This document shows, piece by piece, positions 140-57,660 of a DNA stretch of 64,000 bases. A program made the position numbers and the translations under genes. The notes beneath the pieces are model-generated. The model made no database searches and was not told where the DNA came from. It saw nothing but the letters and a program-made list of their open reading frames with translations. This stretch comes from Dugong dugon (Eukaryota; Chordata; Mammalia; Sirenia; Dugongidae): assembly GCA_030035585.1 (NCBI GenBank), contig CM057482.1:47287501-47351500 (forward strand). Reading direction: 5' to 3'. The stretch's first letter is position 1, and every line of letters begins with the position of its first letter.

Positions 140-470
140 ACATTGGTGGTTCAGTGGTAGAATTCTTGCCTCCCACATGGGAGACCCGGGTTCAATTCCC
201 GGCCAATGCACCTCATGTATGGCTACCACTCATTTGTCAGTGGAGGCTTGCATGTTGCTATGATGTTGAACAGGTTTCAGTAGAGCTTCCACAGACAAAG
301 GCCTGGTGATCTACTGAAAATCAACCAGTAAAAACCCCATGGATCACAAGAGTCCAATCTGCAACCAATGACGGGGACGGCGCAGGACAGGGCAGCATTA
401 TGTTCCTTTGTGCATGGGGTCGCCGTGAGTCAGGGGTTGATTTGATGGCAGTTAACAATAACAACAACAA
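140..470 (+). mobile_element. tRNA-Gly-derived afrotherian SINE, near full length
   Basis: Positions 140-210 read as an almost complete tRNA-Gly, with TGGTTCAGTGGTAGAATTCT as A-box region and GGTTCAATTCC as B box. The anticodon loop carries CCC. A SINE body follows (GTGGAGGCTTGCATGTTGCT..., AAGGCCTGGTGATCTACTG...). The tail ends in an AACAATAACAACAACAAA repeat, the same type of tail as the RTE LINEs in this window. No CCA-ready isolated tRNA gene context is present, so this is a SINE head and not a tRNA gene. Confidence 0.85.
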
Positions 471-14460: not shown

Positions 14461-15030
14461 TTGGCAGCAGTGCTGTGGAGACACAGAGAAGGGGTCCTCC
14501 CACCTGAGTTCAGGGGGGCTGTGGGGCATGCTGTGGAGATACAGAGAAGGGGTCTTCCCACCTGAGTTCAGGGTGGCAGTGGGACATCCTGTGGAGACAC
14601 AGGAAAGGGTCCCCCATCCAAGTTCAGGGGGAGCCATGGGGTGTGCTGTGGACATACAAGGAGGGGTCCCCCCACCCAAGTTCAGAAGGGCTGTGAGACA
14701 TGCTGTGGAGACACAGGGAATGGTCCCACCTGAGTTCTGAGGGGAGCCGTGGGCCATGCTGTGGAGAACAAAGAAGTGTCCCCACACCTTAGTTCTGGGG
14801 GGGCCGTGGGCAGTGCTATAGAGACACAAGGAAGTGTCTTCCCACCTTATTTCTGGGGGAGCGCTGGGCCATGCTGTAGGGACAAAGGGAAGCGTCTCCC
14901 ACCTGAGTTCAGGGGAACTGTGTGATGTGCTGTGGAGACACAGGGAAGGGTCCTCCCAACTGAGTTCTTGGTGGGGGCGTGGGCCATGCTGTGGAGACAT
15001 AGGGAAGGGTCCCCCCACAGGGGCTCGGGG
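14461..15030. repeat. Minisatellite, about 10 copies of a 56-59 bp unit
   Basis: The anchor TGCTGTGGAGACACAGGGAA (variants) recurs at about 14471, 14529, 14587, 14644, 14701, 14758, 14814, 14872, 14928 and 14987, so spacings are 56-59 bp. Each unit also carries CCACCTGAGTTCAGGGG. Copies differ by substitutions and 1-3 bp indels. The minus strand stays open for 188 codons across the array, because most units are near 57 bp (19 codons). I see no support for a protein. Confidence 0.95.
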
Positions 15031-17282: not shown

Positions 17283-20200
17283 AATTAAAAGTCAAAGGTT
17301 GGAAAAAAACATATCAAGCTAACAACTACCAAAAAAGAGCAGGAGTAGCAATTCTAATCTCAGATAAAATAGATTTTAAAATGAAATCTACCATAAAAGA
17401 CAAAGAAGGACACTATATAATGATTAAGGGGACGATCCATCATGACGACATAATCATAATAAACATCTATGCACCCAATGACAGGGCTCCCAAATACATA
17501 AAACAAACTCAAACTACTCTGAAAAGAGAAATTGACAGTTCCACAATAATAGTAGGAGACTTCAACACACCACTCTCAGTAAAGGAAAGAACAGCTAAGA
17601 AGAAACTCAGCAAAGATACAGAAGACCTAAAGGGCACAATCAGCCAACTTAGCCTCATAGACATATATAGAACACTCCATCCAACCGCTGCAAAGTACAC
17701 ACTCTTTTCCAACGCACATGGAATGTTCTCCAGAATAGACCACATCTTAGGCCACGGAGCAATCCTCAACAAGATCCAAAACATTGAGGTAATTCAAAGT
17801 ATCTTCTCTGACCACAATGCCATCAAGGTAGAAATTAACAATAGAAAGAGCAAGGAAAAAAAAAAAAATCAACTAATGGACACTGAATAATACCCTGCTT
17901 ACACATCACTGGGTAATAGAAGAAACCAGAGATGGAATCAAAAAATTCCTAGAATCAAATGAGAATGAAAACACATCATACCAAAACCTTTGGGACACAG
18001 CAAAGGCAGTCCTCAGAGGACAATTTATAGCAATAGATGTACACATCAAAAAAGAAGAAAGGCACAAAATCAAAACATTAAATACAGAACTCAAACAAAT
18101 AGAAAGAGAACAGCAAAAAAAGCCCACAACCACCAGAAGAAAGGAAATAGTAAAGATGAGAGCAGAAATAAATGAAATAGAGAACAGAAAAACAATAGAA
18201 AGAATCAACAAAAACAAAAGTTGGTTCTGTGAAAGAATCAACAAAATCGACCACCACTGAACAGAATGAAAAAAGAAAAACAGGAAAGGACACAAATAAC
18301 CCAAATAAGAAATAAAATGGGGGACATTACAACAGACCCAACTGAAATAAAAAGGATTATAACAGAATATTATGAAAAACTACACTCCAACAAATTTGAA
18401 AACCTAGAGGAAATGGATAAATTTCTAGAAACACATAGCCTACCAAAACTACAACAAAGTGATGTTGAAAATCTGAACAGACCCATAACAAGAGAAGAGA
18501 TTGAAAAGGTAATAAAAAAACTCCCAACGAAATAAAGCCACGGCCCAGATGGCTTCACTGGAGAATTCTACAAAACATTTACAGAAGAGCTTGTACCAGT
18601 ACTACTCAAGCGATTTCAGAGCATAGAAGAGGAAGCAACACTTCCAAATTCATTCTATGAAGCCAGCATAACGCTGATACCAAAACCAGGAAAAGATGAC
18701 ACAAAAAAAGAAAATTACAGACCAATATCTCTCATGAATATAGATGCAAAAATTCTCAACAAAATTCTAGCCAATAAAATTCAGCATCATATCTAAAAAA
18801 TAATACACCACGACCAAGTAGGATTCATACCAGGTATGCAAGGATGGTTCAACATTAGAAAATCAATCAATGTAATCCACCACATAAATAAAAGGAAAGA
18901 AAAAAATCACATGATCATCTCAATTGACGCAGAAAAGGCATTTGACAAAGTCCAACACCCATTCCTGATAAAAACTCTCAATCAAATAGGTATAGAAGGG
19001 AAATTTCTCAACATAATAAAGGGCATCTATGCAAAACCAATGGCCAATATCATTCTTAATGGAGACAGGATGAAAACATTCCCCTTGAAAACAGGAACAA
19101 GAGAAGGATGCCCTTTATCCCCATTCCTATTTAACATTGTGCTGGAAATTCTAGCTAGAGCAATAAGGCAAGAAAAAGAAATAAAGGGCATCCAAACTGG
19201 TAATGAAGAAGTTAAACTGTCCCTGTTTGCAGATGATATGATACTATACACAGAAAACCCTAAAGACTCCACGAGAAATCTACTGGAACTAATGGAGAGA
19301 TTCAACAGAGTAGCAGGATACAAGATAAAAATTCAAAGATCAGTTGGATTCCTATACACCAATAAGGAGAACGATGAAAAGGAAATCAGGAAATCAATAC
19401 CATTTTCAATAGCCCCTAAAAAGATACAATACTTAGGAATAAATCTGACCAGGGATGTAAAAGACCTATACAAAGAAAACTACAAAACACTACTGCAAGA
19501 AACCAAAAGGGATCTACATAAATGGAAAAACATACCATGCTCATGGATAGGCAGACTCAACATTGTGAAAATGACAATTCTACCCAAAGCAATTTACAAA
19601 TACAATGCAATCCCGATCCAAATACCAACAACATTCTTCAAAGAGATAGAAAAACTAATCATTAACTTTATATGGAAAGGGAAGAAGCCCCGAACAAGTA
19701 AAGCACTACTGAAGAAAAAGAAGAAAGTTGGAGGACTCACACTACCTGACTTCAGAACCTACTATACAGCTACAGTAGTCAAAACAGCCTGGTACTAATA
19801 CAATGACAGATACATTGACCAATGGAACAGAATTGACAACCCAGATGTAAATCCATCCACCTACGGTCACCTGATCTTCAACAAGGGCCCAAAGTCCATC
19901 AAATGGGGAAGAGACAGTCTTTTCAACAAATGGTGCTGGCAAAACTGGATATCCATCTGCAAAAAAATGAAACAGGACCCATACCTCATACCGTATACAA
20001 AAACTACTTCAAAATGGATCAAAGACCTGAATATAAAGCCTAAAACTATAAAGTTCATAGAAGAAAAAGTAGGACCTACACTTCAGGCCTTAATACATGG
20101 CATTAACAGGATACAAACCATAACCATCAATGCACAAAACCCAACAGATAAGCTAGATAACTGGGATCTTCTAAAAATCAAACACCTATGCTCTTCAAAA

Positions 20201-20463
20201 GACTTCACCAAAAGAGTCAAAAGAGAACCTACAGACTGGGAAAAAATTTTTGGACAGTACAAGTCAGACAAAGGTCTAATCTCCATAATCTACAAGAAAA
20301 TCCAACACCTCTACAACAAAAAGACAAATAATCCTATTAAAAAATGGGCAAAGGAAATGAACAGACACTTCAGCAAAGAAGACATTCAAATGGCCAACAG
20401 ACACATGAGGAAATGCTTGCCATCACTAGCCATTAGAGAAATGCAAATTAAAACCACAATGAG
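17283..20463 (+). mobile_element. Older L1, ORF2 part upstream of nested insertion
   Basis: 5'-truncated L1 whose homology to the full-length element begins at TTAAAA(G/A)TCAAAGGTTGG, inside the endonuclease domain. The frame is broken several times: open pieces at 17381-17890, 18266-18535, 18836-19798 and 19967-20563. The RT motif FADD is still readable around 19230. Sampled stretches differ from the intact copy at roughly 5-6% of bases by eye. It stops exactly at AAAACCACAATGAG (20450-20463), where the full-length L1 starts. The continuation is at 29274-30962. Confidence 0.92.
20450..20463 (+). repeat. Target-site duplication of full-length L1, left copy
   Basis: AAAACCACAATGAG, identical to 29260-29273. 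The junction AATT/AAAA fits the TT/AAAA preference of the L1 endonuclease. Confidence 0.93.
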
Positions 20464-20474
20464 GGAGAGAGGGG

Positions 20475-20484
20475 CAAGATGGCG
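20475..20484 (+). promoter_or_regulatory. YY1-like motif at L1 5' end
   Basis: CAAGATGGCG begins 12 bases into the element. Human L1 has a YY1 site (CAAGATGGCC) at nearly the same offset, where it sets the transcription start position. Equivalence here is inference. Confidence 0.6.
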
Positions 20485-20692
20485 CTCTAGGCAGAAACAC
20501 CACGCCGTCCCTCCACAGCAAAGATCCGAAAAACTAAGCCTAACAGAGAATCAACAATCCTGAAACCCTAGAACACCAAATGAAGAGATAAAGAACTCAG
20601 CCAAACACCAAACGGAGTGAGAATACTAAAAGAGAACGGAGAGCGAGGAGAGACTCAGGCAGAGATTCCTTACCAGCTAACGCAGCGCGGAT

Positions 20693-20704
20693 CCACCATC
20701 TTGG
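20693..20704 (-). promoter_or_regulatory. Second YY1-like motif, inverted
   Basis: CCACCATCTTGG is the reverse complement of CCAAGATGGTGG. It lies about 220 bp inside the L1, just upstream of the monomer array. Confidence 0.45.
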
Positions 20705-20834
20705 ATTCCTATCGGAGACCAGCAAACGGGAGAGCAGCCTTGCAGAGCATCTGGTCGGAGACAGAACGACCGGTAAACTGCGGTGCGCGCTCTCCCACCA
20801 CCCACCCCTCTCCGCCTCAGCTGGGGATCCCCTG

Positions 20835-21655
20835 CTTTCCGTGGCCAGGGTCTCTGGGCTGGGGGGTGCTGGTGCTTGGATTCCGCGCGCCTGGGCTGGC
20901 GGCTTTCTGGGAGCCGTTTGCTGGCAGCTAGCGAACCTTTCTCTGCCGCCTCCCCCTCCTTTTGCCTGGGTGCCTGGTTCCGAGTGCCGTCTCTGCTCTC
21001 TCCTGCGGGGCTGTAGGGCTGCGTGCGGGCGTGTGGCTGTTTCTGGGTCTGGGCTCCCGCGTGGGTGGGATCCCGGGGCCTTTGTTCGTTCGCCCCTCTG
21101 CTTTCCGTGGCCGGGGTCCCTGGGCGGGGGGGCGCCGGTGCTTGGGTTCCGCGCGCCCGGGCTGGGGGCTTTCTGGGAGCCGTTTGCTGGCACCTAGCGG
21201 ACCTTTTTCTGCCGCCTCCCCCTCCTTTTGCCTGGGTGCCTGGGTCCGGGTGCTGTCTCTGCTCTCTCCTGCGGGGCTGTGGAGCTGCGTGCGGGCGTGT
21301 GGCTGTTTCTGGGTCTGGGCTCCCGCGTGGGTGGGATCCCGGGGCCTTTGTTCGTTCACCCCTCTGCTTTCCGTGGCCGGGGTCCCTGGGCGGGGGGGCG
21401 CCGGTGCTTGGGTTCCGCGCGCCCGGGCTGGGGGCTTTCTGGGAGCCATTTGCTGGCACCTAGCGGACCTTTTTCTGCCGCCTCCCCCTCCTTTTGCCTG
21501 GGTGCCTGGTTCCGAGGGCCGTCTCTGCTCTCTCCTGCGGGGCTGTAGGGCTGCGTTCGGGCGTGTGGCTGTTTCCAGGTCTGGGCTACCGCGCGGGTGG
21601 GATCCTGGGGCCTTTGTTCGTTGGCCCCTCTGCTTCCCGTGGCCACGGTCACTTA
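20835..21655 (+). promoter_or_regulatory. Tandem 266-bp monomers in L1 5' UTR
   Basis: Units start at CTTTCCGTGG in 20835, 21101 and 21367, with a short partial fourth from 21633. The spacing is exactly 266 bp each time, also measured on TTTGTTCGTT at 21081, 21347 and 21613. The units are very GC-rich with many CpGs. In mouse L1 such monomers carry promoter activity and add up, so the same role is inferred here. The low divergence between units suggests recent duplication or homogenisation. Confidence 0.93.
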
Positions 21656-22432
21656 ACCCCGAGACTATCGGCTTCTTGGAATTCGCGCCCCTGAGTGGGG
21701 GCTCTCTGGGTCCCATTTGTAGGCACTGACTGCTGGTGTTGCCCTTTTTTTTTTTTTCTCAATTTTATTTTTCTTCCTTTTTTGATTAGTTTTGTCATAT
21801 TTTACCTCTTTTTCTCTTTTGTCTTTCTTCATTGCTTAATTTCTTGTCCCTCTATCTCTTCCTTCTCTTTCTGATCCCTGAATACCAGGCGATGTATGCC
21901 TCTGTACCTTCTGGCCAGGCTGAGCTGTGAAAATTGAGACCGACTCCCCCAGACCTCATAGCTGCATCGGTGGGATCCCTGGGAACTTTGCAGTTCTTTA
22001 ACTTTTCTGATTTTCATTTGGTCATTCTTTCCTTTTCTTTCTCTTCCCCCTTCTGGTTTCCTCCATCCCATAGTCTCTCATCTGTACATTCCAACGACAA
22101 ACTCCCCTAGCATTCTTTTATGTTTGTACACTTTTTGCTCCTCCTCCTCTCTCCTCTCTCCCATATCCAGCTTAGCTTCACACATAACCATCTTCCCGCT
22201 GCACCCTACCTACCTGCACCGTGCACTAGACATCACATCACCAAGCGGTGCAGGCACGCCCTATTGGAACCTGCCCAGCACTGACTACCGACCGTCCTGG
22301 TGGCTGCGGTGAGTGCCACAAGCAACCCATCCCAGTGGCTCCTCCTCAACTAGATCTGCCCAGCTGTACCACAAGAACGAAAAAAAAAAAAAAAAAAATC
22401 TACAATCAATAAACGAGAGAAATATCTACTGA

Positions 22433-23482
22433 ATGCCCCGAAAACAGCAAACAATATCAAAACATTTACAAAAACAAGACAAGATGGCTCCAATAGGCGT
22501 CCAAATTAAAACACCAGATAACTCTCCTGTGGAAGAAAATGCACTAGAAGTACCTGATACGGAACTCAAATCACTAATACTCGGAATTTTCCAAGAACTG
22601 AGGCAAAAAGCTGACAAACATGAGGAAAAAATAGACAAATTTATGGAAAATACAGACAAAAAATTGGAAGAATTCAGGAAGATGATGCAAGAACAAAATG
22701 CCAAAATAAATTCACAACTCGAAATTATACAAAAACAACAATTAGAAATCCAAAAGATAAACAACAAGATTTCAGAAATGGACGGTGTCATAGAAGGGCT
22801 GAGAAGTAGATTTGAAACCATGGAAGACAGGATCAGTGGAACTGAAGACAAACACTTGGATACAACTCTGTTTCAGGAAAACTCAGAAAAAAGAACAAAG
22901 AAAAATGAAGAGACCCTGAGAGTTATGTGGGACACAATTAAAAGCAAAAACTTACGAGTGATTGGCATACCAGAAAAGGGGGAGAAAACAGAAAACACAG
23001 AGAGGATCATTGAGGAACTGCTGACAGAAAACTTTCCCAATATCATGAAAGATGAAAAGCTGGTCATCCAAGAAGCTCAACGAACCCCATATAGAAGAGA
23101 CCCCAAAAGAAAATCACCAAGACATATCATATTCACACTCGCTAAAACTAAAGACAAACAAAGAATCCTGAGAGCAGCTCGGGAAAAACAAGAAGTCACA
23201 TACAGAGGAGAAACAATAAGACTAAGCTCAGATTATTCAGCAGAAACCATGCAGGCAAGAAGGCAATGGGATGACATATATAAAATCTTGAAAGAAAAAA
23301 ATTGTCAGCCAAGAATAATATATCCTGCAAAACTCTCATTCAGATTTGATGGTGAAATTAGGTCATTTCCAGATAAACAGAAACTAAAGGAATATGCAAA
23401 AGTCAAACCAAACTTACAAGAATTATTAAAGGGAGTTCTTCGATCTGAGGACAAACAGCTTAAGCCCTCAGGCAGGACCTAG
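22433..23482 (+). CDS. L1 ORF1 protein (RNA-binding chaperone)
   Basis: 349 codons, open from ATG to TAG. ORF1p coats L1 RNA as a trimer and is needed for retrotransposition. Visible parts: a charged N-terminus; a long Glu/Lys/Gln-rich coiled-coil region of about residues 40-160 (EELRQK-like heptads, QLEIIQKQQLEIQKINNKIS); an RRM-like core starting near residue 168 (NLRVIGIPEKGEKTENTE); and a C-terminal domain with REKQEVTYRGETIRLSSDYS (from residue 250) and YPAKLSFRFDGEIRSF (from residue 297). Human ORF1p is 338 residues, so the length is normal. The start is the first ATG after the A-rich end of the 5' UTR. No internal stop or frameshift is present. Confidence 0.95.
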   Translation: MPRKQQTISKHLQKQDKMAPIGVQIKTPDNSPVEENALEVPDTELKSLILGIFQELRQKADKHEEKIDKFMENTDKKLEEFRKMMQEQNAKINSQLEIIQKQQLEIQKINNKISEMDGVIEGLRSRFETMEDRISGTEDKHLDTTLFQENSEKRTKKNEETLRVMWDTIKSKNLRVIGIPEKGEKTENTERIIEELLTENFPNIMKDEKLVIQEAQRTPYRRDPKRKSPRHIIFTLAKTKDKQRILRAAREKQEVTYRGETIRLSSDYSAETMQARRQWDDIYKILKEKNCQPRIIYPAKLSFRFDGEIRSFPDKQKLKEYAKVKPNLQELLKGVLRSEDKQLKPSGRT

Positions 23483-23725
23483 GACCTAGGATGCAGGTTA
23501 ACATGAACCAGATACCATTCTAGGAACTGAACTACAGACGACTTTCCAAAAACAAAAGATATACAACAGGGAATCAGAGAAATCAATCAAAGGATGACAA
23601 CAACATCAAAACAATGAAAGAGGGAACAAACGGCATAGGTATAGAACCTTCTAAAGGAGAAGAAGGCAAGGCGATACCAAGTAACGGTAGACTGCTTCAA
23701 AATTATAAAGATAAGGGTAAAATTC

Positions 23726-23917
23726 ATGGTAACCACAAAAAAAGTTAACAAACCAACTCATAAAAATAAAGACGAAAAACATAAAGTCTCAACAAAAACA
23801 AAACCTACAAAAACAAAAGAAATGAACACAAAATCCACAAACAAAAGGAACTCAGCACAAGAGAGTAAGAAGAACAAAGAAAATTTCAGCATCACAAAAA
23901 AAAGCACTACAAAATGA
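23726..23917 (+). CDS. Lys-rich small ORF in the L1 inter-ORF spacer, stop overlaps ORF2 start
   Basis: 63 codons in the 431-bp spacer between ORF1 and ORF2. It is almost entirely Lys, Thr, Asn, Ser and Glu. Its TGA (23915-23917) overlaps the ORF2 ATG (23914-23916) as ATGA. An A-rich spacer will tend to be open and Lys-coding, so a real peptide is unproven. The overlap is the geometry expected if ribosomes terminate and reinitiate at ORF2. I know of no described L1 protein with this sequence. Confidence 0.3.
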
Positions 23918-26900
23918 CAGCAACAAACTCACATCTATCAATAATTACACTGAACGTAAATGGACTCAATGCACCCATAAAGCGACGGAGAGTGGCAGAA
24001 TGGATAAGAAAACAGGATCCATCTATTTGCTGTCTACAAGAGACACATCTTAGAAACAAAGATGTGAATTTATTAAAAATCAAAGGTTGGAAAAAACTAT
24101 ATCAAGCTAACAACTATCAAAAAAGAGCAGGAGTGGCAATTCTAATCTCAGATAAAATAGACTTTAAAACAAAATCTACCATAAAAGACAAAGAAGGACA
24201 CTATATAATGATTAAGGGGATGATCCATCATGAAGACATAACCATAATAAATATCTATGCACCCAATGACAGGGCTCCAAAATACATAAAAAAAACTCTA
24301 ACAGCACTGAAAAGAGAAATTGACAGTTCCACAATAATAGTAGGAGACTTCAACACACCACTCTCAGTAAAGGACAGAACAACTAAAAAGAAACTTAGCA
24401 AAGATACAGAAGACCTAAAGGACACAATCAGCCAACTGGACCTCATAGACATATATAGAACACTCCATCCAACCGCTACAAAGTACACATTCTTTTCCAA
24501 TGCACATGGAACGTTCTCCAGAATAGACCACATCTTAGGCCACAGAGCAATCCTCAACAAGATCCAAAATGCTGAGATAATTCACAGTATCTTCTCTGAC
24601 CACAATGCCATCAAGGTAGAAATTAACACTAGAAAGAGCAAGGAAAAAAAATCAAACACATGGAAACTGAATAATAATCTGCTTACACATCAATTGGTAA
24701 TAGAAGAAATCAGAGATGGAATTAAAAAATTCCTAGAATCAAATGAAAATGAAAACACGTCATACCAAAACCTTTGGGACACAGCAAAGGCAGTCCTCAG
24801 AGGGCAATTTATAGCAATAGATGCACATATCAAAAAAGAAGAAAGGGACAAAATCAAAACATTAACTACAGAACTCAAACAAATAGAAAGAGAACAACAA
24901 AAAAAGCCTACAACCACCGGAAGAAAGGAAATAGTAAAGATCAGAGCAGAAATCAATGAAATAGAGAGCAGAAAAACAATAGAAAGAATCAACAAAACCA
25001 AAAGTTGGTTCTTTGAAAGAATCAACAAAATCGACAAACCACTGGCCAGACTGACAAAAGAAAAACAGCAGAGGGCACAAATAACCCAAATAAGAAATGA
25101 AATGGGGGACATTACAACAGACCCAACTGAAATAAAAAGGATTATAACAGAATATTATGAAAAACTATATTCCAACAAATTTGAAAACCTAGAGGAAATG
25201 GATAAATTTCTAGAAACATACGGCCTACCCAAACTACAACAAAGTGATATTGAAAATCTGAACAGACCCATAACAAGAGAAGAGATTGAAAAGGTAATAA
25301 AAAAACTCCCAACCAAAAAAAGCCCTGGCCCAGATGGCTTCACTGGAGAATTCTACAAAACATTTACAGAAGAGCTCGTACCAGTTCTACTCAAGTTATT
25401 TCAGAGCATAGAAGAGGAAGCAACACTTCCAAATTCATTCTATGAAGCCAGCATAATGCTGATACCAAAACCAGGCAAAGACATCACAAAAAAAGAAAAT
25501 TACAGACCAATATCTCTCATGAATATAGATGCAAAAATTCTGAACAAAATTTTAGCCAATAGAATTCAGTATCATATCAAAAAAATAATACACCACGACC
25601 AAGTAGGATTCATACCAGGTATGCAAGGATGGTTTAACATTAGAAAATCCATCAACGTAATCCACCACATAAATAAAAGGAAAGAAAAAAATCACATGAT
25701 TATCTCAATTGATGCAGAAAAGGCATTTGACAAAGTCCAACACCCATTCCTGATAAAAGCTCTCAATAAAATAGGTATAGAAGGGAAATTTCTCAACATC
25801 ATAAAGGGCATCTATGCAAAACCAACAGCCAACATCATTCTTAATGGAGAAAGGCTGAAAACATTCCCCCTGAAAACAGGAACAAGACAAGGATGCCCTT
25901 TATCACCACTCCTATTTAACATTGTGCTGGAAGTTCTAGCTAGAGCAGTAAGGCAAGAGAAAGAAATAAAGGGCATCCAAATTGGTAATGAAGAAGTTAA
26001 ACTCTCCCTGTTTGCAGATGATATGATACTATACATAGAAAACCCTAAAGACTCCACGAGAAATTTACTGGAACTAATAGAAAGATTCAGCAGAGTAGCA
26101 GGATACAAGATAAACATTCAAAAATCAGTTGGATTCCTATACACCAGTAAAGAGAACGATGAAAAGGAGATCAGGAAATCAATACCATTTTCAATAGCCC
26201 CTAAAAAGATAAAATACTTGGGAATAAATCTGACCAGGAATATAAAAGACCTATACAAAGAAAACTACAAAACACTGCTGCATGAAACCCAAAGGGATCT
26301 ACATAAATGGAAAAACATACCATGCTCATGGATAGGAAGACTCAACATTGTGAAAATGGCAATTCTACCTAAAGCAATTTACAAATACAATGCAATTCCG
26401 ATACAAATACCAACAACATTCTTCAAAGAGATGGAAAAACTAATTATTAACTTTATATGGAAAGGGAAGAAACCCCGAATAAGTAAAGCACTACTGAAGA
26501 AGAAGAATAAAGTTGGAGGACTCACACTACCTGACTTGAGAACCTACTATACAGCTACAGTACTCAAAACAGCCTGGTACTGGTACAACAACAGAGACAT
26601 TGACCAATGGAACAGAATTGAGAACTCAGATGTAAATCCATCCACCTACGGTCACCTGATTTTTGACAAGGGCCCAAAATACATCAAATGGGGAAAAGAC
26701 AGTCTTTTTAACAAATGGTGCTGGCAAAACTGGATATCCATTTGTAGAAAAATGAAACAGGACCCATACCTCACACCATATACAAAAACTACTTCAAAAT
26801 GGATCAAAGACCTGAATATAAAGCCTCAAACTATAAAATTCATAGAAGAAAAAATAGGACCAACACTTCAGACCTTAATACATGGCATTAACAGGATACA

Positions 26901-27735
26901 AACCATAAACATCAACACAAAAAACCCAACAGATAAACTAGATAATTGGGATCTTCTAAAAATCAAACATCTATGCTCTTCAAAAGATTTCACCAAAAGA
27001 GTTAAAAGAGAACCTACAGACTGGGAAAAAATTTTTGGACAGTACAAGTCAGACAAAGGTCTAATCTCCATAATCTACAAGAAAATCCAACACCTCTACA
27101 ACAAAAAGACAACCAATCCTATCAAAAAATGGGCAAAGGAAATGAACAGACACTTCACCAAGGAAGACATTCAAATGGCCAACAGACACATGAGGAAATG
27201 CTCGCGATCACTAGCCATTAGACAAATGCAAATTAAAACCACAATGAGATACCATCTCACCCCGGCATTACTGGCACGAATCAAAAACACTGGAAATAAC
27301 AAATGTTGGAGGGGCTGTGGGGAGACGGGAACTCTTATACACTGCTGGTGGGAATGCAAAATGATACAGCCATTTTGGAAAATGATATGGCGTTTCCTCA
27401 GAAAGCTAGAAATAGACGTACCATTCGATCCAGCAATCCCACTCCTAGGAATATATCCTAGAGAAATAAGAGTCATCACTCGAATAGACATATGCACACC
27501 TATGTTCATGGCAGCATTATTCACAATAGCAAAACGATGGAAACAACCTCGATGTCCATCAACAGACGAATGGATACACAAACTATGGTACATACACACA
27601 ATGGAGTACTATGCAACGAGAAAGAACAATGAATCGGTGAACCATCTCATAACATGGATGAAACTGGAGGACATCATGCTGAGTGAAATAAGTCAATCAC
27701 AAAAGGACAAATATTGTATGAGACCTCTATTGTAA
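23914..27735 (+). CDS. L1 ORF2 protein: endonuclease and reverse transcriptase
   Basis: 1273 codons without a break (human ORF2p has 1275). ORF2p nicks target DNA and reverse transcribes L1 RNA from the nick. N-terminal APE-type endonuclease: N14 (LNVNGLN), E43 (QETHL), D145 and N147 (GDFN), and the SDH motif ([10 protein letters not shown]). The RT domain has [26 protein letters not shown] and FADD, whose aspartates fall at residues 702 and 703 as in human ORF2p. The C-terminal Cys-rich motif [18 protein letters not shown] begins at residue 1131. All catalytic residues I can check are present, so the protein looks functional. The start codon sits in the ATGA overlap with the spacer ORF. Confidence 0.96.
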
Positions 27736-27787
27736 AAACCCATGAAAAAATTCACATGCAAAATGTAACAATCCTTGTTGGTTACCA

Positions 27788-27807
27788 GGGATGGGAGGGT
27801 GGGGGGG
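27788..27807 (+). promoter_or_regulatory. G-quadruplex motif in L1 3' UTR
   Basis: GGGATGGGAGGGTGGGGGGG fits G3+N1-7 four times with loops of 1-2 bases. The homologous site in the older copy (about 29819-29841) also keeps four G-runs. G-rich polypurine tracts are known in mammalian L1 3' UTRs. Confidence 0.7.
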
Positions 27808-28756
27808 AATACTAAATAGGTAATAGGTAAGTGGTAACTTGGGTGAGAGATGAGATAGTACATAGTACAGGGGAAACTAACACAACCTGCACAAGGAAAG
27901 GTCATGGAGGCCCTATAGACACATCCAAACCCCCCGAGGGACTGAGTTGTTGGACAGAGGGCTCTGGGGACCATGATCTCGGGGAACATCTAGCTCAATT
28001 GGCATGACACTACTTATAAAGATAATGCTCTACATTCTACCTTGGTGAGTAGTGTCTGGGGTCTTAAAAGCCTATGAGCGGCCATCTAAGATACTCCACT
28101 GATCTCATCCCTTCGGGAACAAGGGAGAACGAAGAGAACAGGATACAAGGAAAAGATTAGTCCGAAGGACTAATGGTCCACAGCTACCAAGGCCTCCACG
28201 GGACTGAGCCCAGTACAGCTGGATGGTGCCCGGCTACCACCAATGACTCCTCTGACCAGGATCACAACAGAGGGTTCTGGGCAGAGCTGGAGTAGGATGT
28301 AGAGTATAATTTTAACTCCCAAAAAAAAAAAAAAAAAAGAAGACCAGATATACTGGCCTAAAGAATACTAGAGAAACCTCGAGAGTGTGGCCCCCAGACA
28401 CCCTTTCAGCTCAGAGGGGAAGTTACCTTCAAGGTTCGATGTTAAGCCTGGGAATGGACACCCCAGTAAAACTAAATGGGACTAACGATGTACAGGAGTC
28501 CGGTGACAAGGGCCAGAAGGCAGAGGGAGAGTAGGAAACTGATGATAAGGAACACAAATTGAATAAGGACACTGTCGATGTATTGTGAGATTGTTGACCA
28601 CTGCTATAGGGCAACATTTGTAGTAACTATTAAATGGGAGGCTGTTGTGTCCTGTAAGCCTTCATCTTGGGCGAGAATGGCAGCACAATTGGAAGAGCAT
28701 AGTCAATATCACTTAAATGTGTAAGTAAAAAGTTTTGAAATGGTGTTTAAATAAAA

Positions 28757-28787
<31 letters not shown>

Positions 28788-29220
28788 AAACAAATGAGAC
28801 TAAAGAGGTACAATAGTCCACTGACAAGGTCCAGAAGACAGAAGGGGACAAGGAAGCCCCCTGGTGATAGGGAACACAAGGTGGAGTAAGGATATTCTTG
28901 ATGTGCTGTGAGATTGTTAACCATTGTCATAGGGCAACATGTGTAGTAACTGTTAAATGAAAAACTATTTTGTTCTGTAAGCCTTCATCTTAAGTGAGAA
29001 TAACAGCACAGTTGGAAGAGCGTAGTCAATGTCACTGAACTGTGAATGTAGAAATTTTTGAAACGGTGTATCTTTGGCCATCTGTAATTTTCATCAAAAA
29101 AAAAGGTTGAGAATTTAGAGGCTTAATACGTTGTGGGGTTGTTAACCAATGTCAAAAAACAACATGTGTACTACTATTTCATGAGAAACTATTTGCTCTG
29201 TAAGCTTTCACCTGAAGTAC

Positions 29221-29226
29221 AATAAA
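29221..29226 (+). terminator. Polyadenylation signal of full-length L1
   Basis: AATAAA after AAGTAC, about 15 bases before the long A-run that ends the element. Confidence 0.75.
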
Positions 29227-29232
29227 ATATAT

Positions 29233-29259
<27 letters not shown>

Positions 29260-29263
<4 letters not shown>

Positions 29264-29273
29264 CCACAATGAG
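29260..29273 (+). repeat. Target-site duplication of full-length L1, right copy
   Basis: AAAACCACAATGAG directly after the poly(A), identical to 20450-20463. ORF2 sequence of the older L1 resumes without loss. Confidence 0.93.
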
Positions 29274-30962
29274 ATACCATCTCACCCCGGCACTACTGGC
29301 ACGAATTAAAAACACTGGAAATAACAAATGTTGGAGGGGCTGCGGGGAGATCGGAACTCTTATGCACTGCTGGTGGGAATGCAAAATGATACAACCATTT
29401 TGGAAAATGATATGGCGCTTCCTCAGAAAGCTAGAAATAGACATACCATTCGATCCAGCAATCCCACTCCTGGGAATATATCCTAGAGAAATAAGAGTCG
29501 TCACTCGAATAGACATATGCACACCTATGTTCATGGCAGCATTGTTCACAATAGCGAAATGATGGAAACAACCTAGATGCCCATCAACAGATGAATGGAT
29601 AAACAAACTATGGTACATACACACAATGGAGTACTATGCAATGAGAAAGAACAACAATGAATCTGTGAACCATCTCATAACATGGATGAAACTGGAGGAC
29701 ATTATGCTGAGTGAAATAAGTCAATCACAAAAGGACAAATATTGTATGAGACCTCTATTGTAAAAACCCATGAAAAAGTTCACACACAAAATGTAACCAT
29801 CCTTTTTGGTTACCAGGAATGGGAGGGGTTGGGGTGGGGGAATACTAAATAGGCAATAGATAAGTGGTATCTTGGGTGAAGGGTGAGACAGTACACAATA
29901 CAGGGGAAACTAGCACAACTTGGACAAGGAAAGGTCATGGACGCCCCATAGACGCATACAAACTCCCTGAGGGACTGAATTGCTGGGCGGAGGGCTGTGG
30001 GGACCATGGTCTCAGGGAACATCTAGCTCAATTGGCATGACACTGCTTGTGAAGACAGTGCTCTACATTCTACCTTGGTGGGTAGTGTCTGGGGTCTTAA
30101 GAGTCTGCGAGCAGCCATCTAAGATACTCCACTGGTCTCATCCCTTCAGGAGCAGGGGAGAATAGAGAGAGCAGGATACAAGGAAGGGATTGGCCCGAAG
30201 GACTAATGGTCCACAGCTGCCAGGGCCTCCACCGGACTGGGTCCAGTGCAGCTGGATGGTGCCCGGCTGCCACCGCTGACTGCTCTGGCCGGGATCACAG
30301 CAGGGGGTTCTGGACGGAGCTGGAGGATATAGAGCATAACTTTAACTCACAAAGAGAAGACCAGATTTATTGGCCTAAAGGCGAATGGAGAAGCCCCGAG
30401 AGTGTGGCCCCCAGACACCCTTTTAGCTCAGTGGTGAAGTTACCTCTGAAGTTCACTGTTCAGCCTGGGAATGGACAGCCCTGTAAAAACAAATGAGACT
30501 AACGAGGCACAGGAGTCCAATGATAAGGGCCAGAAAGCAGAAGGGGACAAGGAAGCTGGTGATAGGGAACCCAAGGTTGAGTAAGGATATTGTTGATACG
30601 TTGTGAGATTGTTAACCATTGTCATAGGGCAACATATGTAGTAACTGTTAAATGAGAAACTATTTTGTTCTGTAAGCCTTCATCTTAAGTGAGAATAAGA
30701 GCACAATTCGAAGAGCGTAGTCAATGTCACTGAACTGTGCACGTAGAAATTTTTGAAATGGTGTATCTTTGGCTATGTGTATTTTCACCAAAAAAAAAAA
30801 AAAAAAAAAAAAAAAGGTTGAGAAGTTAGAGTGTTGATATGTTGTGGGGTTAACCAATGTCATAAAACAACATGTGTACTTCCGTTTCATGAGAAACTAT
30901 TTGTTTTGTAAGCCTTCACCTGAAGTACAATAAATAAATAAATTAATAATAATTTTTTAAAA
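29274..30962 (+). mobile_element. Older L1, continuation after nested insertion
   Basis: ORF2 C-terminus (ATACCATCTCACCCCGGCAC onward) with a premature TGA after TIAK (about 29561), then a 3' UTR with two of the repeated modules. An internal A-run lies at 30790-30815, and the A/T-rich tail ends near 30962. Divergence from the full-length L1 is about 5% by eye, matching 17283-20463, so the two parts form one element. Confidence 0.88.
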
Positions 30963-30964
30963 AA

Positions 30965-32389
30965 CCCACAATGAGATACCATCTCAGTCCGGCATTCTGG
31001 CACAAATCAAAAAAACTGGAAATAACAAATATTGGAGAGGCTGCGGGGAGATCGAACTCTTATGCACTGCTGGTGAGAATGCAGAATGATACTACCATTT
31101 TGGAAAACGATATCGTGCTTCCTTAAAAAGCTAGAAATAGAAATATCAGACAATCCAGCAATCCCACTCCTAGGAATATATCCTAGAGAAACAGGAGCTG
31201 TCACACAAATAGACATATGCACACCCATGTTCATTGCAGCATTGATCACAGTAGCAAAAAGATGGAAACAACCTAGATGCCCATCAACAGATGAATGGAT
31301 AAACAAATTATGGTGCATATACACAATGGAGTATTACACAACAAGAAAAACATTGATGAATCTGCGAAGCATCTCATAACATGGATGAAACTGGAGGACA
31401 TTATGCTGAGTGAAATAAGTCAATCACAGAAGGGCAAATATTGTAAGAGACCACTACTGTAAAAACTCATGAAAAGGTTTACACACAGAAAGAAACAATC
31501 TTTGATGGTCATGAGGGATGGGAGGGGTTAAAGGGGGAAATACTAAATAGACAATAGATAATTGGTAACTTTGGTGAAGGGTAAGACAGTACACAATACT
31601 GGGGAAGCCAGCACAACTTGTACAAGGAAAGGTCATGGAAGCACCATAGACACATCCAAACTCCCTGAGGGACCAAATTGCTGGGCTTAGGGCTGTAGGG
31701 ACCATAGTTTCGGGGAACATCTAACTCAATTGGCATAACATAGTTTATAAAGAAAATGTTCTATGTTCTACCTTGGTGAGTAGCATCTGGGGTCTTAAAA
31801 GCTTGTGAGCAGCCATCTAAGATACTTCACTGGTCTCACCCCTTCGAGAGCATGGGAGAATGAAGAAAACAAGGTACAAGGGAAAGATTAGTCCAAAGGA
31901 CTAATGGACCACAACTACCATGACCTCCACCAGACTGAGACCAGTACAACTAGATGGTGCCCGGCTACCACCACTGACTGCTCTGACCGGGATCACAACA
32001 GAGGGTCCCAGGCAGAGCTGGAGAAAAATGTAGAACAAAATTCTAACTCACACAAAAAGACCAGACTTACTGGCCTGACAGAGACTGCTGAAACTCCAAG
32101 AGCGTGGCCCCCGGACTTCCTTTTAGCTCAGTAATGAAGTCACTCCTGAGGTTCACTATTCAGCCAAAGATTAGACTGCCCCATAAAACAAAATGAGACT
32201 AATGGGGCACACAGCCCAGGGGCAAGGACTAGAAGGCAGGAGGGGACAGGAAAGGTTGATAAGGGGAGAGTGTTGACATGTCGTGAGGTTGCTAACCAAC
32301 GTCATAAAACAGTACATGTACTAATTGTTTAAGGAGAAACTGTCCTATAAACCTTCATCTAAAGTACAATTAAAAAAATAAAATAAATT
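30965..32389 (+). mobile_element. Third, more diverged L1 3' end
   Basis: Starts CCCACAATGAGATACCATCT, at nearly the same ORF2 position as the nested insertion site. It carries a decayed ORF2 C-terminus (frameshifts; open piece 31086-31379) and a 3' UTR ending GTACAATTAAAAAAATAAAA. Sampled divergence from the full-length copy is about 8-12%, clearly older than its neighbour. No target-site duplication was found. Confidence 0.85.
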
Positions 32390-32394
32390 GGATG

Positions 32395-35695: not shown

Positions 35696-37208
35696 ACACA
35701 ACGGAATACTACCAGGTGATAAACAACAACAATGAAGCCGTGAAACATCTTATAACATCGAGGAAGCTGGAGGTCATTATGCTGAGTGAATTTAGTTAGT
35801 CACAGAAGGACAAATATTGTATAAGACCACTATTATAAGAATACAAGAAAAGGTTTAAAAACAGAAGAAAACATTCTTTGATGGTTAGGAGGGTGGGGAA
35901 GGGAGGGCGAGGGTTATTCACTAACTAGATAGTAGATAAGAATTATCTTAGGTAAAGGGAAGGACAGCACACACTACAGGGGAAGTCAGCACAACTGGAC
36001 TAAACCAAAGCTAAGAAGTTTCCTGAATACAGTCAAACACTTTGAGGGACAGAGTAGCAGGGGTAGGGGTCTGGGGACCATGCTTTCAGGGGACATCTAG
36101 GTCAACTGGCATAACAAAGCTTATTAAGAAAATGCTCTGCATCCTACTTCCGTGAGCGGCATCTGGGGTCTTAAAAGCTTGCAAGCAGCCATCTAAGATG
36201 CATCAACTGGTCCCAACCACCTGGAGTAAAGGAGAATGAAGAACACCATGGACACAAGGACAGTATTACCCAAGAGACAGAAAGGGCCACATAAACCAGA
36301 GACTTCATCAGCTTGAGACCAGAAGAACTAGATGGTACCCGGCTACCACCAATGGCAGCCCTGACAGGGAACACAACAGAGAGTCCCTGATGGAGTAGGT
36401 GGAAGGTGGGGTGCAGAACTCAAATTCTAGTAAGAAGACCAGACTCAATGGTCTGACTGAGACTGCAGGTACCCCAGAAAGCATGACCCCTGGATTCTCT
36501 ATCAGCCCAGAGCTAAAATTTCTGAGGCCAACTCTTCAGACAGGGATTAGACTGGACTGTGGGACATAAAGTGATACTCGTGAGGAGTGTGCCTCTTAGC
36601 TCAAGTAGATACAAGAGACTAAACGGGCAGCTTCTGTCCAGAGGTGAGATGGGAAGGCAGAGAGGGTTAGGAGCTGGTTGAATGGACATGGGGAATCAGG
36701 GGTGGAAAGGAGGAGTGTGCTGTCACAGTATGGGGAGAACAGTTAGGGTCATATAACAGTGTATGCATAAATTTTTGTATGGGAGACTAACTTGAAATGT
36801 AAACTTCATTTAAACTACAACAATAAACAAAAACAAAAACAAAAGACCAGACTTACTGACCAGAGACTGCAAAAAGCCCAAGACTATGACCCCGGGCCAC
36901 CCTTTTAGCTCAGTAATGAAGTCACTCCTGAGGTTCACCCTTCAGCCAAAGATTAGACAGCCCCATAAAACAAAATGAGACTAAAGGGGCACACTAGCCC
37001 AGGGGCAAGAACTAGAAGGCAGGAGGGGACAGGAAAGCCGGTAATAGGGAACCCAAGGTTGAGAAGGGGACAGTGTTGACAGGTCATGGGGTTGGTAACC
37101 AATGTCACAAAAACAATATGTATACTAATTGTTTAATAAGAAGCTAGTTCGTTCTGTAAACCTTCATCTTAAGTACAATAAAAAAAAGTAAAATAATAAA
37201 AAAGAAAA
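35696..37208 (+). mobile_element. Compound L1 insertion made of two joined 3' ends
   Basis: 35696-36842 is an ORF2 C-terminal remnant plus a complete 3' UTR ending in (AAAAAC)n. 36845-37208 begins GACCAGACTTACTGACCAGA, mid-3' UTR, and runs to a second A-rich tail. One 13-bp duplication AAATCTGGTAGCT (35683-35695 and 37209-37221) flanks the pair, so they were inserted together. Confidence 0.8.
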
Positions 37209-56514: not shown

Positions 56515-57660
56515 ACAATATGGATGGAGCTGGAAGACATTGTGCTGAGTGAAATAACTCAATCACAAAAGGACAAATACCACATGACCTCACTTATATA
56601 AAAAGACAAGAAAAGGAAAATGTATAGAGAACAGTTTAATACTGGTTACCAGGGGCGGGAAGGAGGGGCAAATTGGGGATTAACAGTGATGGAAATACCA
56701 CATTGATTAAGGGTAGGGTTGCACAGAGATTGTTATGATTTCTGTCAATAAGTTCTACACCTGTCAAAAGTTGAATTGGCAAAAGCTATGTGACAGACAT
56801 ATTTACAACAATGACAAAGAAAATAAAAAGAGTAGCTGCTGAGGCTGCTTATGTACAACCAAAATCCTCACGGGATTTCGTTTCTTGGTTTGGAGATTTA
56901 GGATCATGGTTTCATGGGACATCTCAGTTAATGGGCCTGATAACATGTTTAGTGCTTCTGTTCTACCTCCTAGTTCGTTGTGTAGTGCCTGGAGTCTTAA
57001 AGGCTTGCAGGCGGCCATCCAAGACATATCCATTGGTCTCTATTCACCTGGTGCAACAGAGGATAAAGGAGTGTCAGGAATAGGAGGAGGAAATGAAGTC
57101 TGTGCTAATGGCCTCCATGAACAAATGCCTCCTTTGCCATAAGACCAGATGGACTGGATGGTGTCTGGCTACCATTATTGAACATTTTAATCAAAGATTC
57201 CATAGAAGAATCCTGATCAAAAGGGGGAAAATGCAGAACAGAATTCAAATTCTCATGGACTTCAGACTTCCTGGAGCCATGGAGGGTGGATGAACCCCTG
57301 AAACTGCTGCCCTGAAATAATCTTTAAACCTTAAAACAAAAATATTCCCTAAAGTCTTCTTAAAACCAAACAATAGTTTAGCTTAAGTAGTAAAAAATAT
57401 TTGCCTTGAGCATTATGCTCTTTTAAAAACTATTTATGGGATTCAATTGACAACAGCAACTTGAAAGATTAGATAGGAACCTTAGGGGATGGTGAGTTTA
57501 TGTTAATGAAGGGTGAACAACTCAGAAAAGGAGGGTGAGAATGGTTGTGCAACTTGAAGAATGTTAATCAATGTCACCATATGGTACATGTAGAAATTGT
57601 TGAATTGGTGTATGTTTTGCTGTGTATATTCTCAACAACAACAACAAAATAAATAAAGTT
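56515..57660 (+). mobile_element. L1 3' end with 3' UTR, older subfamily
   Basis: ORF2 terminal codons (ATGGATGGAGCTGGAAGACA TTGTGCTGAGTGAAATAA) and a long 3' UTR. The UTR includes CCTGGAGTCTTAAAGGCTTG and TTGAAAGATTAGATAGGAAC C, ending TCTCAACAACAACAACAAAA TAAATAAAG. Confidence 0.8.

What the first reader, a model, noticed from the sequence alone, without database searches (positions are those of the whole stretch)
20464..29259. Full-length L1 with both ORFs intact
ORF1 (349 codons) and ORF2 (1273 codons) are uninterrupted. The endonuclease residues N14, E43, D145 and N147, the RT FADD pair at 702/703 and the Cys motif at 1131 all fall at human-like positions. Together with a complete 5' UTR, AATAAA and poly(A), this looks like a coding-competent, possibly active source L1 in an afrotherian genome.
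Basis: partly seen in the sequence, partly recalled or inferred. Interest (0 to 1): 0.75.

Follow-up and report, generated by a model that had tools for sequence, protein, structure and literature searches.

The report
Young intact L1 from abundant family
This is a real, recently inserted, full-length L1 "jumping gene" with both of its genes unbroken, but it belongs to a family with thousands of close copies, so it is ordinary in kind; its main oddities are a piled-up triple tail shared by the family and a rare spliced form.

Summary
Window 20464-29259 is a complete L1 with a 14-bp target-site duplication, inserted into an older 5'-truncated L1. The own-genome search settled its rank: its 5' end occurs exactly 2,095 times and its composite 3'-tail junction 3,974 times. 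Eight of 10 fetched full-length copies lie 0.49-0.71% from it, and 4 of the 10 also have both ORFs open. So it is a very young member of a large, recently active family. "Active source" is not shown: two searches pairing W261L with a neighbouring variant matched only itself, and W261 is kept in human L1 and 9 of 10 relatives. An ORF2 insertion hotspot was tested and not supported (2 exact matches).

The parts
20450..20463 (+). 5' copy of target-site duplication AAAACCACAATGAG, inside ORF2 of the older host L1 (site TT/AAAA)
20464..22432 (+). 5' UTR (1,969 bp), starting GGAGAGAGGGGCAAGATGGCG with a YY1-like core AAGATGGCG at +13
   Evidence: the YY1 reading is recalled
20832..21644 (+). 3.1 tandem 266-bp GC-rich monomers, 93% matches
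20774..21887 (+). GT...AG segment (1,114 bp) spanning the monomers; precisely absent in copy L062; its spliced junction matches exactly 33 times genome-wide
22433..23482 (+). ORF1, 349 aa: Transposase_22 RNA-binding domain and dsRBD-like C-terminal domain; coiled-coil region by similarity
23483..23913 (+). inter-ORF spacer, 431 bp
23914..27735 (+). ORF2, 1273 aa: endonuclease, reverse transcriptase, C-terminal Cys motif
27736..29236 (+). 3' UTR (1,501 bp) with a G4-type polypurine tract at 27788
28469..28787 (+). tail unit A' (28469-28746) and the AATAAA/(TAAA)n tract that follows it (28748-28795 by tandem-repeat call)
28788..29104 (+). tail unit A, ending in A9 (29096-29104); 255 of 278 aligned sites identical to tail A of the host L1
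29105..29259 (+). tail unit B, AATAAA at 29221, and terminal poly(A)
29260..29273 (+). 3' copy of the target-site duplication
17284..20463 (+). host L1 'H', 5'-truncated, part before the insertion; 5 stops and 2 frameshifting indels in its comparable ORF2
29274..30952 (+). host L1 'H', remainder: end of ORF2 and 3' UTR with tail A, A26 (30790-30815), tail B

Best explanation
A full-length LINE-1 of a young, very abundant family, inserted by target-primed reverse transcription in sense orientation into an older L1. Shown by sequence: open ORFs, the catalytic residues examined, an endonuclease-type site, a 14-bp duplication, poly(A), and thousands of copies sharing its ends exactly. Inferred: transcription from the GC-rich monomer 5' UTR, formation of an ORF1p/ORF2p particle, nicking at TTTT/AA and reverse transcription, as in human L1. 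The family's 3' UTR consists of three homologous tail units (A', A, B), each followed by an A-rich tract, copied as one unit. The likeliest origin of the units is successive read-through capture of a downstream L1 tail after an ancestor inserted in sense orientation into an A-run of another L1's 3' UTR. Whether this particular copy can still move is undecided.
For: anatomy and residues; duplication and site; host copy broken; of 109 residue differences the window copy keeps the human residue at 51, 4 of them host stops, the host at 20, neither at 38; tail junction 1995+1979 exact, reversed control 0; 30 of 30 fetched junction loci run collinearly through A and B to 29229 or beyond; one, L030, starts within A' at 28643; 5' end 1032+1063 exact, reversed control 0; 10 full-length relatives fetched: 8 at 0.49-0.71%, one 1.08%, one 3.02%; 4 of 10 with both ORFs open; 21 of 30 3' ends under 1% mismatch; duplications found by script for 8 of 10 relatives, not for L068 and L070.
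Against: No activity was measured. W261L is at a residue kept in human L1, the host copy and 9 of 10 relatives. No copy sharing the tested variant pairs was found. Present-day activity of the family is inferred from low divergence only. The capture origin of the tails rests on homology, A-rich junctions and divergence; no donor locus was traced.
Confidence: 0.92

Rival explanations
1. The element is itself an active source L1 that still produces new insertions.
For: Both ORFs and the catalytic residues examined are intact; 0.20% sample-private change; young family.
Against: Two-variant patterns match only this element, although offspring truncated downstream of that region, or mutated within the pattern, would be missed; W261L.
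Confidence: 0.35
2. The element is coding-intact but retrotransposition-impaired because of W261L in the tower baseplate.
For: W261 is shared by human ORF2p, the host L1 and 9 of 10 relatives, with R in the tenth. Passages of PMC10830420 place the baseplate at residues 254-300 and say that tower deletions keep RT activity while trialanine mutants in various tower regions show no retrotransposition.
Against: Seven other places carry the same 30-mer with L261, so the variant may have been transmitted or have recurred; no passage read speaks of residue 261 itself.
Confidence: 0.35
3. The extra tails in this copy are a private 3' transduction, or a separate 5'-truncated L1 inserted in its poly(A).
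For: Tail A of this copy resembles the host's tail A (255/278 sites) more than its own inner A' does (225/277).
Against: The exact A'-A junction recurs 3,974 times, and all 30 fetched junction loci continue through A and B, some of them matching only from 27947, 28308 or 28412 onward, i.e. 5'-truncated by my reading. So it is a family trait.
Confidence: 0.02
4. The tail series arose by ordinary tandem duplication inside one L1 3' UTR rather than by capture of a downstream L1 tail.
For: The units are homologous and in the same orientation; a tandem duplication needs fewer events.
Against: Each unit is followed by an A-rich tract like a used poly(A) end. Inner A' is twice as far from host tail A (18.7%) as outer A is (9.6%; exploratory Fisher p=0.003 without CpG sites), while ORF2 four-fold sites differ by 7.8%. 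L1 'F' in the window shows another two-tail composite within one duplication, though for F a later nested insertion was not tested.
Confidence: 0.3

Closest known systems
Human LINE-1, ORF2p structure 8uw3 and ORF1p 2ykp
   Same: Two ORFs, EN-RT-Cys ORF2p (821/1269 identical), ORF1p RNA-binding and C-terminal domains, A-rich target, duplication, poly(A); YY1-like core near the start and G4-type 3' UTR tract (likeness to human L1 recalled).
   Different: 1,969-bp 5' UTR with 266-bp monomers, 431-bp inter-ORF spacer, 1.5-kb 3' UTR of serial tails, K instead of Q at ORF2 position 408 in this copy, the host L1 and all 10 relatives.
Monomer-type L1 5' UTRs (mouse; also rat, hyrax, horse, elephant, opossum according to a passage of PMC9022269)
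   Same: GC-rich tandem monomers as presumed promoter; relatives carry fewer or as many monomers (offsets).
   Different: Here the monomers are internal, behind a 368-bp 5' leader with the YY1-like core.
AfroLINE clade (Waters et al. 2007, PMC1764860)
   Same: Afrotherian L1s, with evidence of recent activity in aardvark (abstract and section 10 read).
   Different: That study used a fragment of the RT region; no sequence comparison with it was made here.
Human SpIREs (spliced integrated retrotransposed elements, PMC5860796)
   Same: L1 copies lacking an intra-5'-UTR GT-AG segment; L062 also has its own duplication. 33 exact junctions here beside 2,095 exact 5' ends, two separate exact-match counts; the paper gives 131 of 6,609 in human (passage).
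   Different: Here the missing segment is the monomer array, at other positions than the human splice sites quoted in the paper.

Membership tests
LINE-1 (L1) non-LTR retrotransposon | ORF1p with coiled coil, L1 RNA-binding domain and C-terminal domain | tested here: met
   Transposase_22 and Tnp_22_dsRBD above cut-off; aligned to 2ykp and, for residues 65-167, to 6fia (that 6fia is the coiled coil is recalled)
LINE-1 (L1) non-LTR retrotransposon | ORF2p with APE-type endonuclease, RT and C-terminal Cys motif | tested here: met
LINE-1 (L1) non-LTR retrotransposon | Target-primed insertion: TTTT/AA-type site, target-site duplication, poly(A), no LTRs | tested here: met
   no LTR-like repeat at its two ends among the 20 of 25 direct-repeat families shown
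LINE-1 (L1) non-LTR retrotransposon | Internal 5'-UTR promoter | not testable with these tools
   GC-rich, CpG-rich monomers and YY1-like core seen; transcription not measured
Retrotransposition-competent source L1 | Moves in a cell assay or has traceable offspring | tested here: inconclusive
   Two-variant patterns match only itself; truncated offspring would be missed; no assay
Private 3'-transduction-bearing L1 | Extra 3' sequence absent from relatives | tested here: not met
   Junction present 3,974 times; 30 of 30 fetched junction loci continue through A and B
SpIRE-generating L1 family | GT-AG borders in the 5' UTR matching a precise deletion in independently inserted copies | tested here: met
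   for L062 (own duplication); flanks of the other 32 junction places were not examined

The most novel reading that the evidence does not exclude
L1 families can lengthen their 3' UTR stepwise by capturing the tails of other L1s: because the L1 sense strand is A-rich, new copies tend to land in sense orientation in old L1 3' UTRs, read through into the old tail, and pass on the composite. In this genome one such three-tail composite became the 3' end of a family with at least 3,974 exact junction copies.
Probability: 0.4. Interest if true: 0.5.

Novelty: new member of a known kind. Interest (0 to 1): 0.3.

Why it matters
As a single locus it is ordinary. The family is useful: thousands of copies sharing its ends, some of them intact (4 of 10 sampled), make this genome a good place to study recent L1 activity outside primates and rodents. 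The serial-tail 3' UTR is a testable route for 3' UTR evolution. The monomer-spanning splice junction, 33 exact copies, suggests that spliced L1 by-products known in human arise in another lineage as well.

Tried and rejected
Private 3' transduction or later nested insertion as the source of the extra tails: favoured from the window alone, rejected.

Insertion hotspot in ORF2: in the window two L1 ends abut the same ORF2 position (the element in H, and H's tail beside L1 'T' at about 30961-30967). A genome pattern of A12 followed by CCACAATGAGATACCATCTCAC found only 2 places, this locus and one on C24 whose upstream side is a tail of the same kind, so the hotspot is not supported; tails not ending in 12 pure A would be missed, and the number of unfilled sites was not counted.

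H and T as one template-switch insertion: not favoured, because T looks more decayed than H (alignment) and I saw by eye no duplication joining 17284 and 32390. The absence of T's 5' part upstream of H (no match there) remains unexplained.

Long minus-strand ORFs in the 5' UTR: overlapping frames of a 266-bp repeat, not pursued. Poly(A) length as a sign of youth: dropped, since the older host has an internal A26. A count of H-type junctions without A' (11 exact including H) is uninformative because the 25-mer is probably mostly H's own spelling. ORF2 in viral contigs: 6 stretches matched a pattern, 3 encoded a relative, but 0 distinct loci were returned. ORF2 in genome contigs: 16 stretches matched a pattern, none encoded a relative. 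A 440-base DNA search of the own genome returned 0 but skips common words, so it is no evidence. The ORF2 protein search of the genome never gave an answer. Paper searches on intact afrotherian L1s, monomers, nested L1s and serial tails: searches listed no paper; in the others no title or abstract opening mentions such a composite tail. Most of these papers were seen only as listings, so this is not a claim that it is unpublished.
Full report
Observation. It is flanked by AAAACCACAATGAG (20450-20463 and 29260-29273), the first copy preceded by TT, which implies a TTTT/AA nick on the other strand. Order: 5' UTR 20464-22432, ORF1 22433-23482 (349 aa), spacer 23483-23913, ORF2 23914-27735 (1273 aa), 3' UTR 27736-29236, poly(A).

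Setting. The target is an older L1 (H), 5'-truncated at about ORF2 codon 53, at 17284-20463 and 29274-30952. H differs from the insert at 211 of 3663 ORF2 sites (5.8%; four-fold sites 27 of 345, 7.8%) and has 5 stops, two frameshifting indels and one 3-base indel over the 1220 comparable codons. Of 109 residue differences the insert has the human residue at 51 (4 of them H stops), H at 20 and neither at 38. A result pulling the other way: with the older copy T as outgroup, the insert's lineage has more changes than H (15 against 5 in 492 sites at the end of ORF2; 56 against 47 in the 3' UTR). So H is an early-frozen copy and not merely a decayed one. H's tail abuts L1 'T' (about 30961-32390), and a further L1 'F' (35696-37208, duplication AAATCTGGTAGCT) lies beyond.

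Rank in the genome. The window lies in a 3.158-Gb assembly, contig C25. The 27-mer at the 5' end matches exactly 1032+1063 times, reversed control 0. Of the 100 places listed, 10 full-length regions were fetched, all on C1; five (L061-L065) were picked because their 3' ends were near this copy's, five (L066-L070) without that criterion. Both ORFs are open in L064, L065, L067 and L068: 4 of 10, two in each group. If the sample were representative, intact copies would number in the hundreds; that is an extrapolation from a small, non-random sample. Over 21727-29236 the copy differs from eight of them by 0.49-0.71%, from L070 by 1.08% and from L069 by 3.02%. At sites where all or all but one of the ten agree, it has 15 bases seen in none of them (0.20%); the same measure gives 13-43 for nine of the others and 184 for L069. 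At 0.13% per million years, the rate used for perissodactyl L1s (PMC5872511 passage), 0.20% is about 1.5 million years; the rate is borrowed, and part of the change may predate insertion.

Competence. Sample-private residue changes are ORF1 Q182K and ORF2 I62L, A189T, W261L, N352S, T515M and E1104Q. The two tested genome-wide are not unique to this copy: the E1104Q 30-mer occurs 115 times and the W261L 30-mer 8 times including this copy. W261 is present in human ORF2p, in H and in 9 of 10 relatives (R in the tenth), so L261 is the change I would suspect first; it lies in the tower baseplate (residues 254-300, PMC10830420 passages). E1104 is also kept in human and H. Patterns joining W261L with 24759G or with 24478A match this copy only. 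Of the seven other W261L places, six have no E1104Q match nearby in the 100 of 115 places listed; the seventh, on C26, was beyond the list. So there is no trace of descendants carrying those pairs; descendants truncated downstream of that region would not be seen. ORF2 position 408 is K here, in H and in all ten relatives, Q in human, so that PIP-box glutamine seems dispensable in this family. The wrist residues proposed instead for PCNA binding (PMC7617806, section 9 read) are W and L at the positions of human W1011 and I1014 (alignment).

Tail structure. Repeats in the 3' UTR resolve into unit A' (28469-28746) with an AATAAA/(TAAA)n tract, unit A (28788-29095) with A9, and unit B (29105-29236) with AATAAA and the terminal poly(A). 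H has A, A26 (30790-30815) and B; T has one tail; F has an old-type tail and a T-like tail within a single duplication. Identities: insert A with H A 255/278, A' with H A 225/277, A' with A 222/277, B with H B 110/123, F2 with T 162/183. Divergence from H is 7.8% at four-fold sites, 12.7, 14.9 and 18.7% along the inner 3' UTR and A', then 9.6% in A and 13.0% in B; the tests on these numbers were exploratory. From the window alone a private transduction looked likely. The genome refutes that: the A'-(TAAA)n-A junction occurs exactly 1995+1979 times, reversed control 0, and all 30 fetched junction loci run through A and B to 29229 or beyond, L030 only from 28643 on and three others from 27947, 28308 and 28412 on. 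Over 28137-29232, or the part present, 21 of 30 are under 1% mismatch from this copy; the other nine reach 4.44%. The composite is therefore copied as one RNA. That it was built by capture of L1 tails is my inference.

5' UTR. It has 3.1 GC-rich 266-bp monomers, with CpG observed/expected 0.64 against 0.23-0.26 in the flanks. Monomer 5' UTRs are on record for elephant and hyrax L1s (PMC9022269 introduction passage), so this is not new. Five of the ten relatives appear to have one monomer fewer and L070 two fewer, from alignment offsets. L062 lacks 20774-21887 of this copy's 5' UTR with exact GT and AG borders and has its own duplication; its junction occurs exactly 33 times, reversed control 0. 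This matches the intra-5'-UTR SpIREs described in human (PMC5860796 passages). Whether the 33 are independent splicing products or partly descendants of one was not tested.

Verdict. A correct and carefully located observation of an ordinary thing: one young, coding-intact member of a large L1 family. The family-wide serial tail and the monomer-spanning splice are the parts worth keeping.

Noticed in passing
window 20774-21887; L062: GT-AG segment spanning the 5'-UTR monomers is precisely missing in L062, and its junction matches exactly 33 times genome-wide: SpIRE-like spliced L1 copies.
   Followed up: partly
window 35696-37208: Older L1 'F' with two different 3' tails in series inside one 13-bp duplication (AAATCTGGTAGCT): a second serial-tail structure.
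   Followed up: partly
window 30952-30975 and 17284: Host L1 H ends where L1 T resumes at the homologous ORF2 position, but no match to T's 5' part lies upstream of H; suggests an insertion-associated deletion.
   Followed up: partly
window 28988-29106 and 57565-57644: The last ~80 bp of tail unit A resemble (74%) another A-tailed repeat in the window, so unit A may itself carry a captured foreign end.
   Followed up: no
window 27788; also 29821, 31515, 35891: G-quadruplex-type polypurine tract early in the 3' UTR of the four L1s examined here, as known for L1 3' UTRs (recalled).
   Followed up: no
window 140-212: tRNA-Gly (CCC) gene by ARAGORN; Rfam tRNA match 46.2 bits, gathering 29.
   Followed up: no
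window 14471-15018: Minisatellite of 58-bp units, 9.6 copies.
   Followed up: no
ORF2 codon 408 (window 25135-25137): K in place of the human PIP-box Q in this copy, the host L1 and all 10 sampled relatives.
   Followed up: partly
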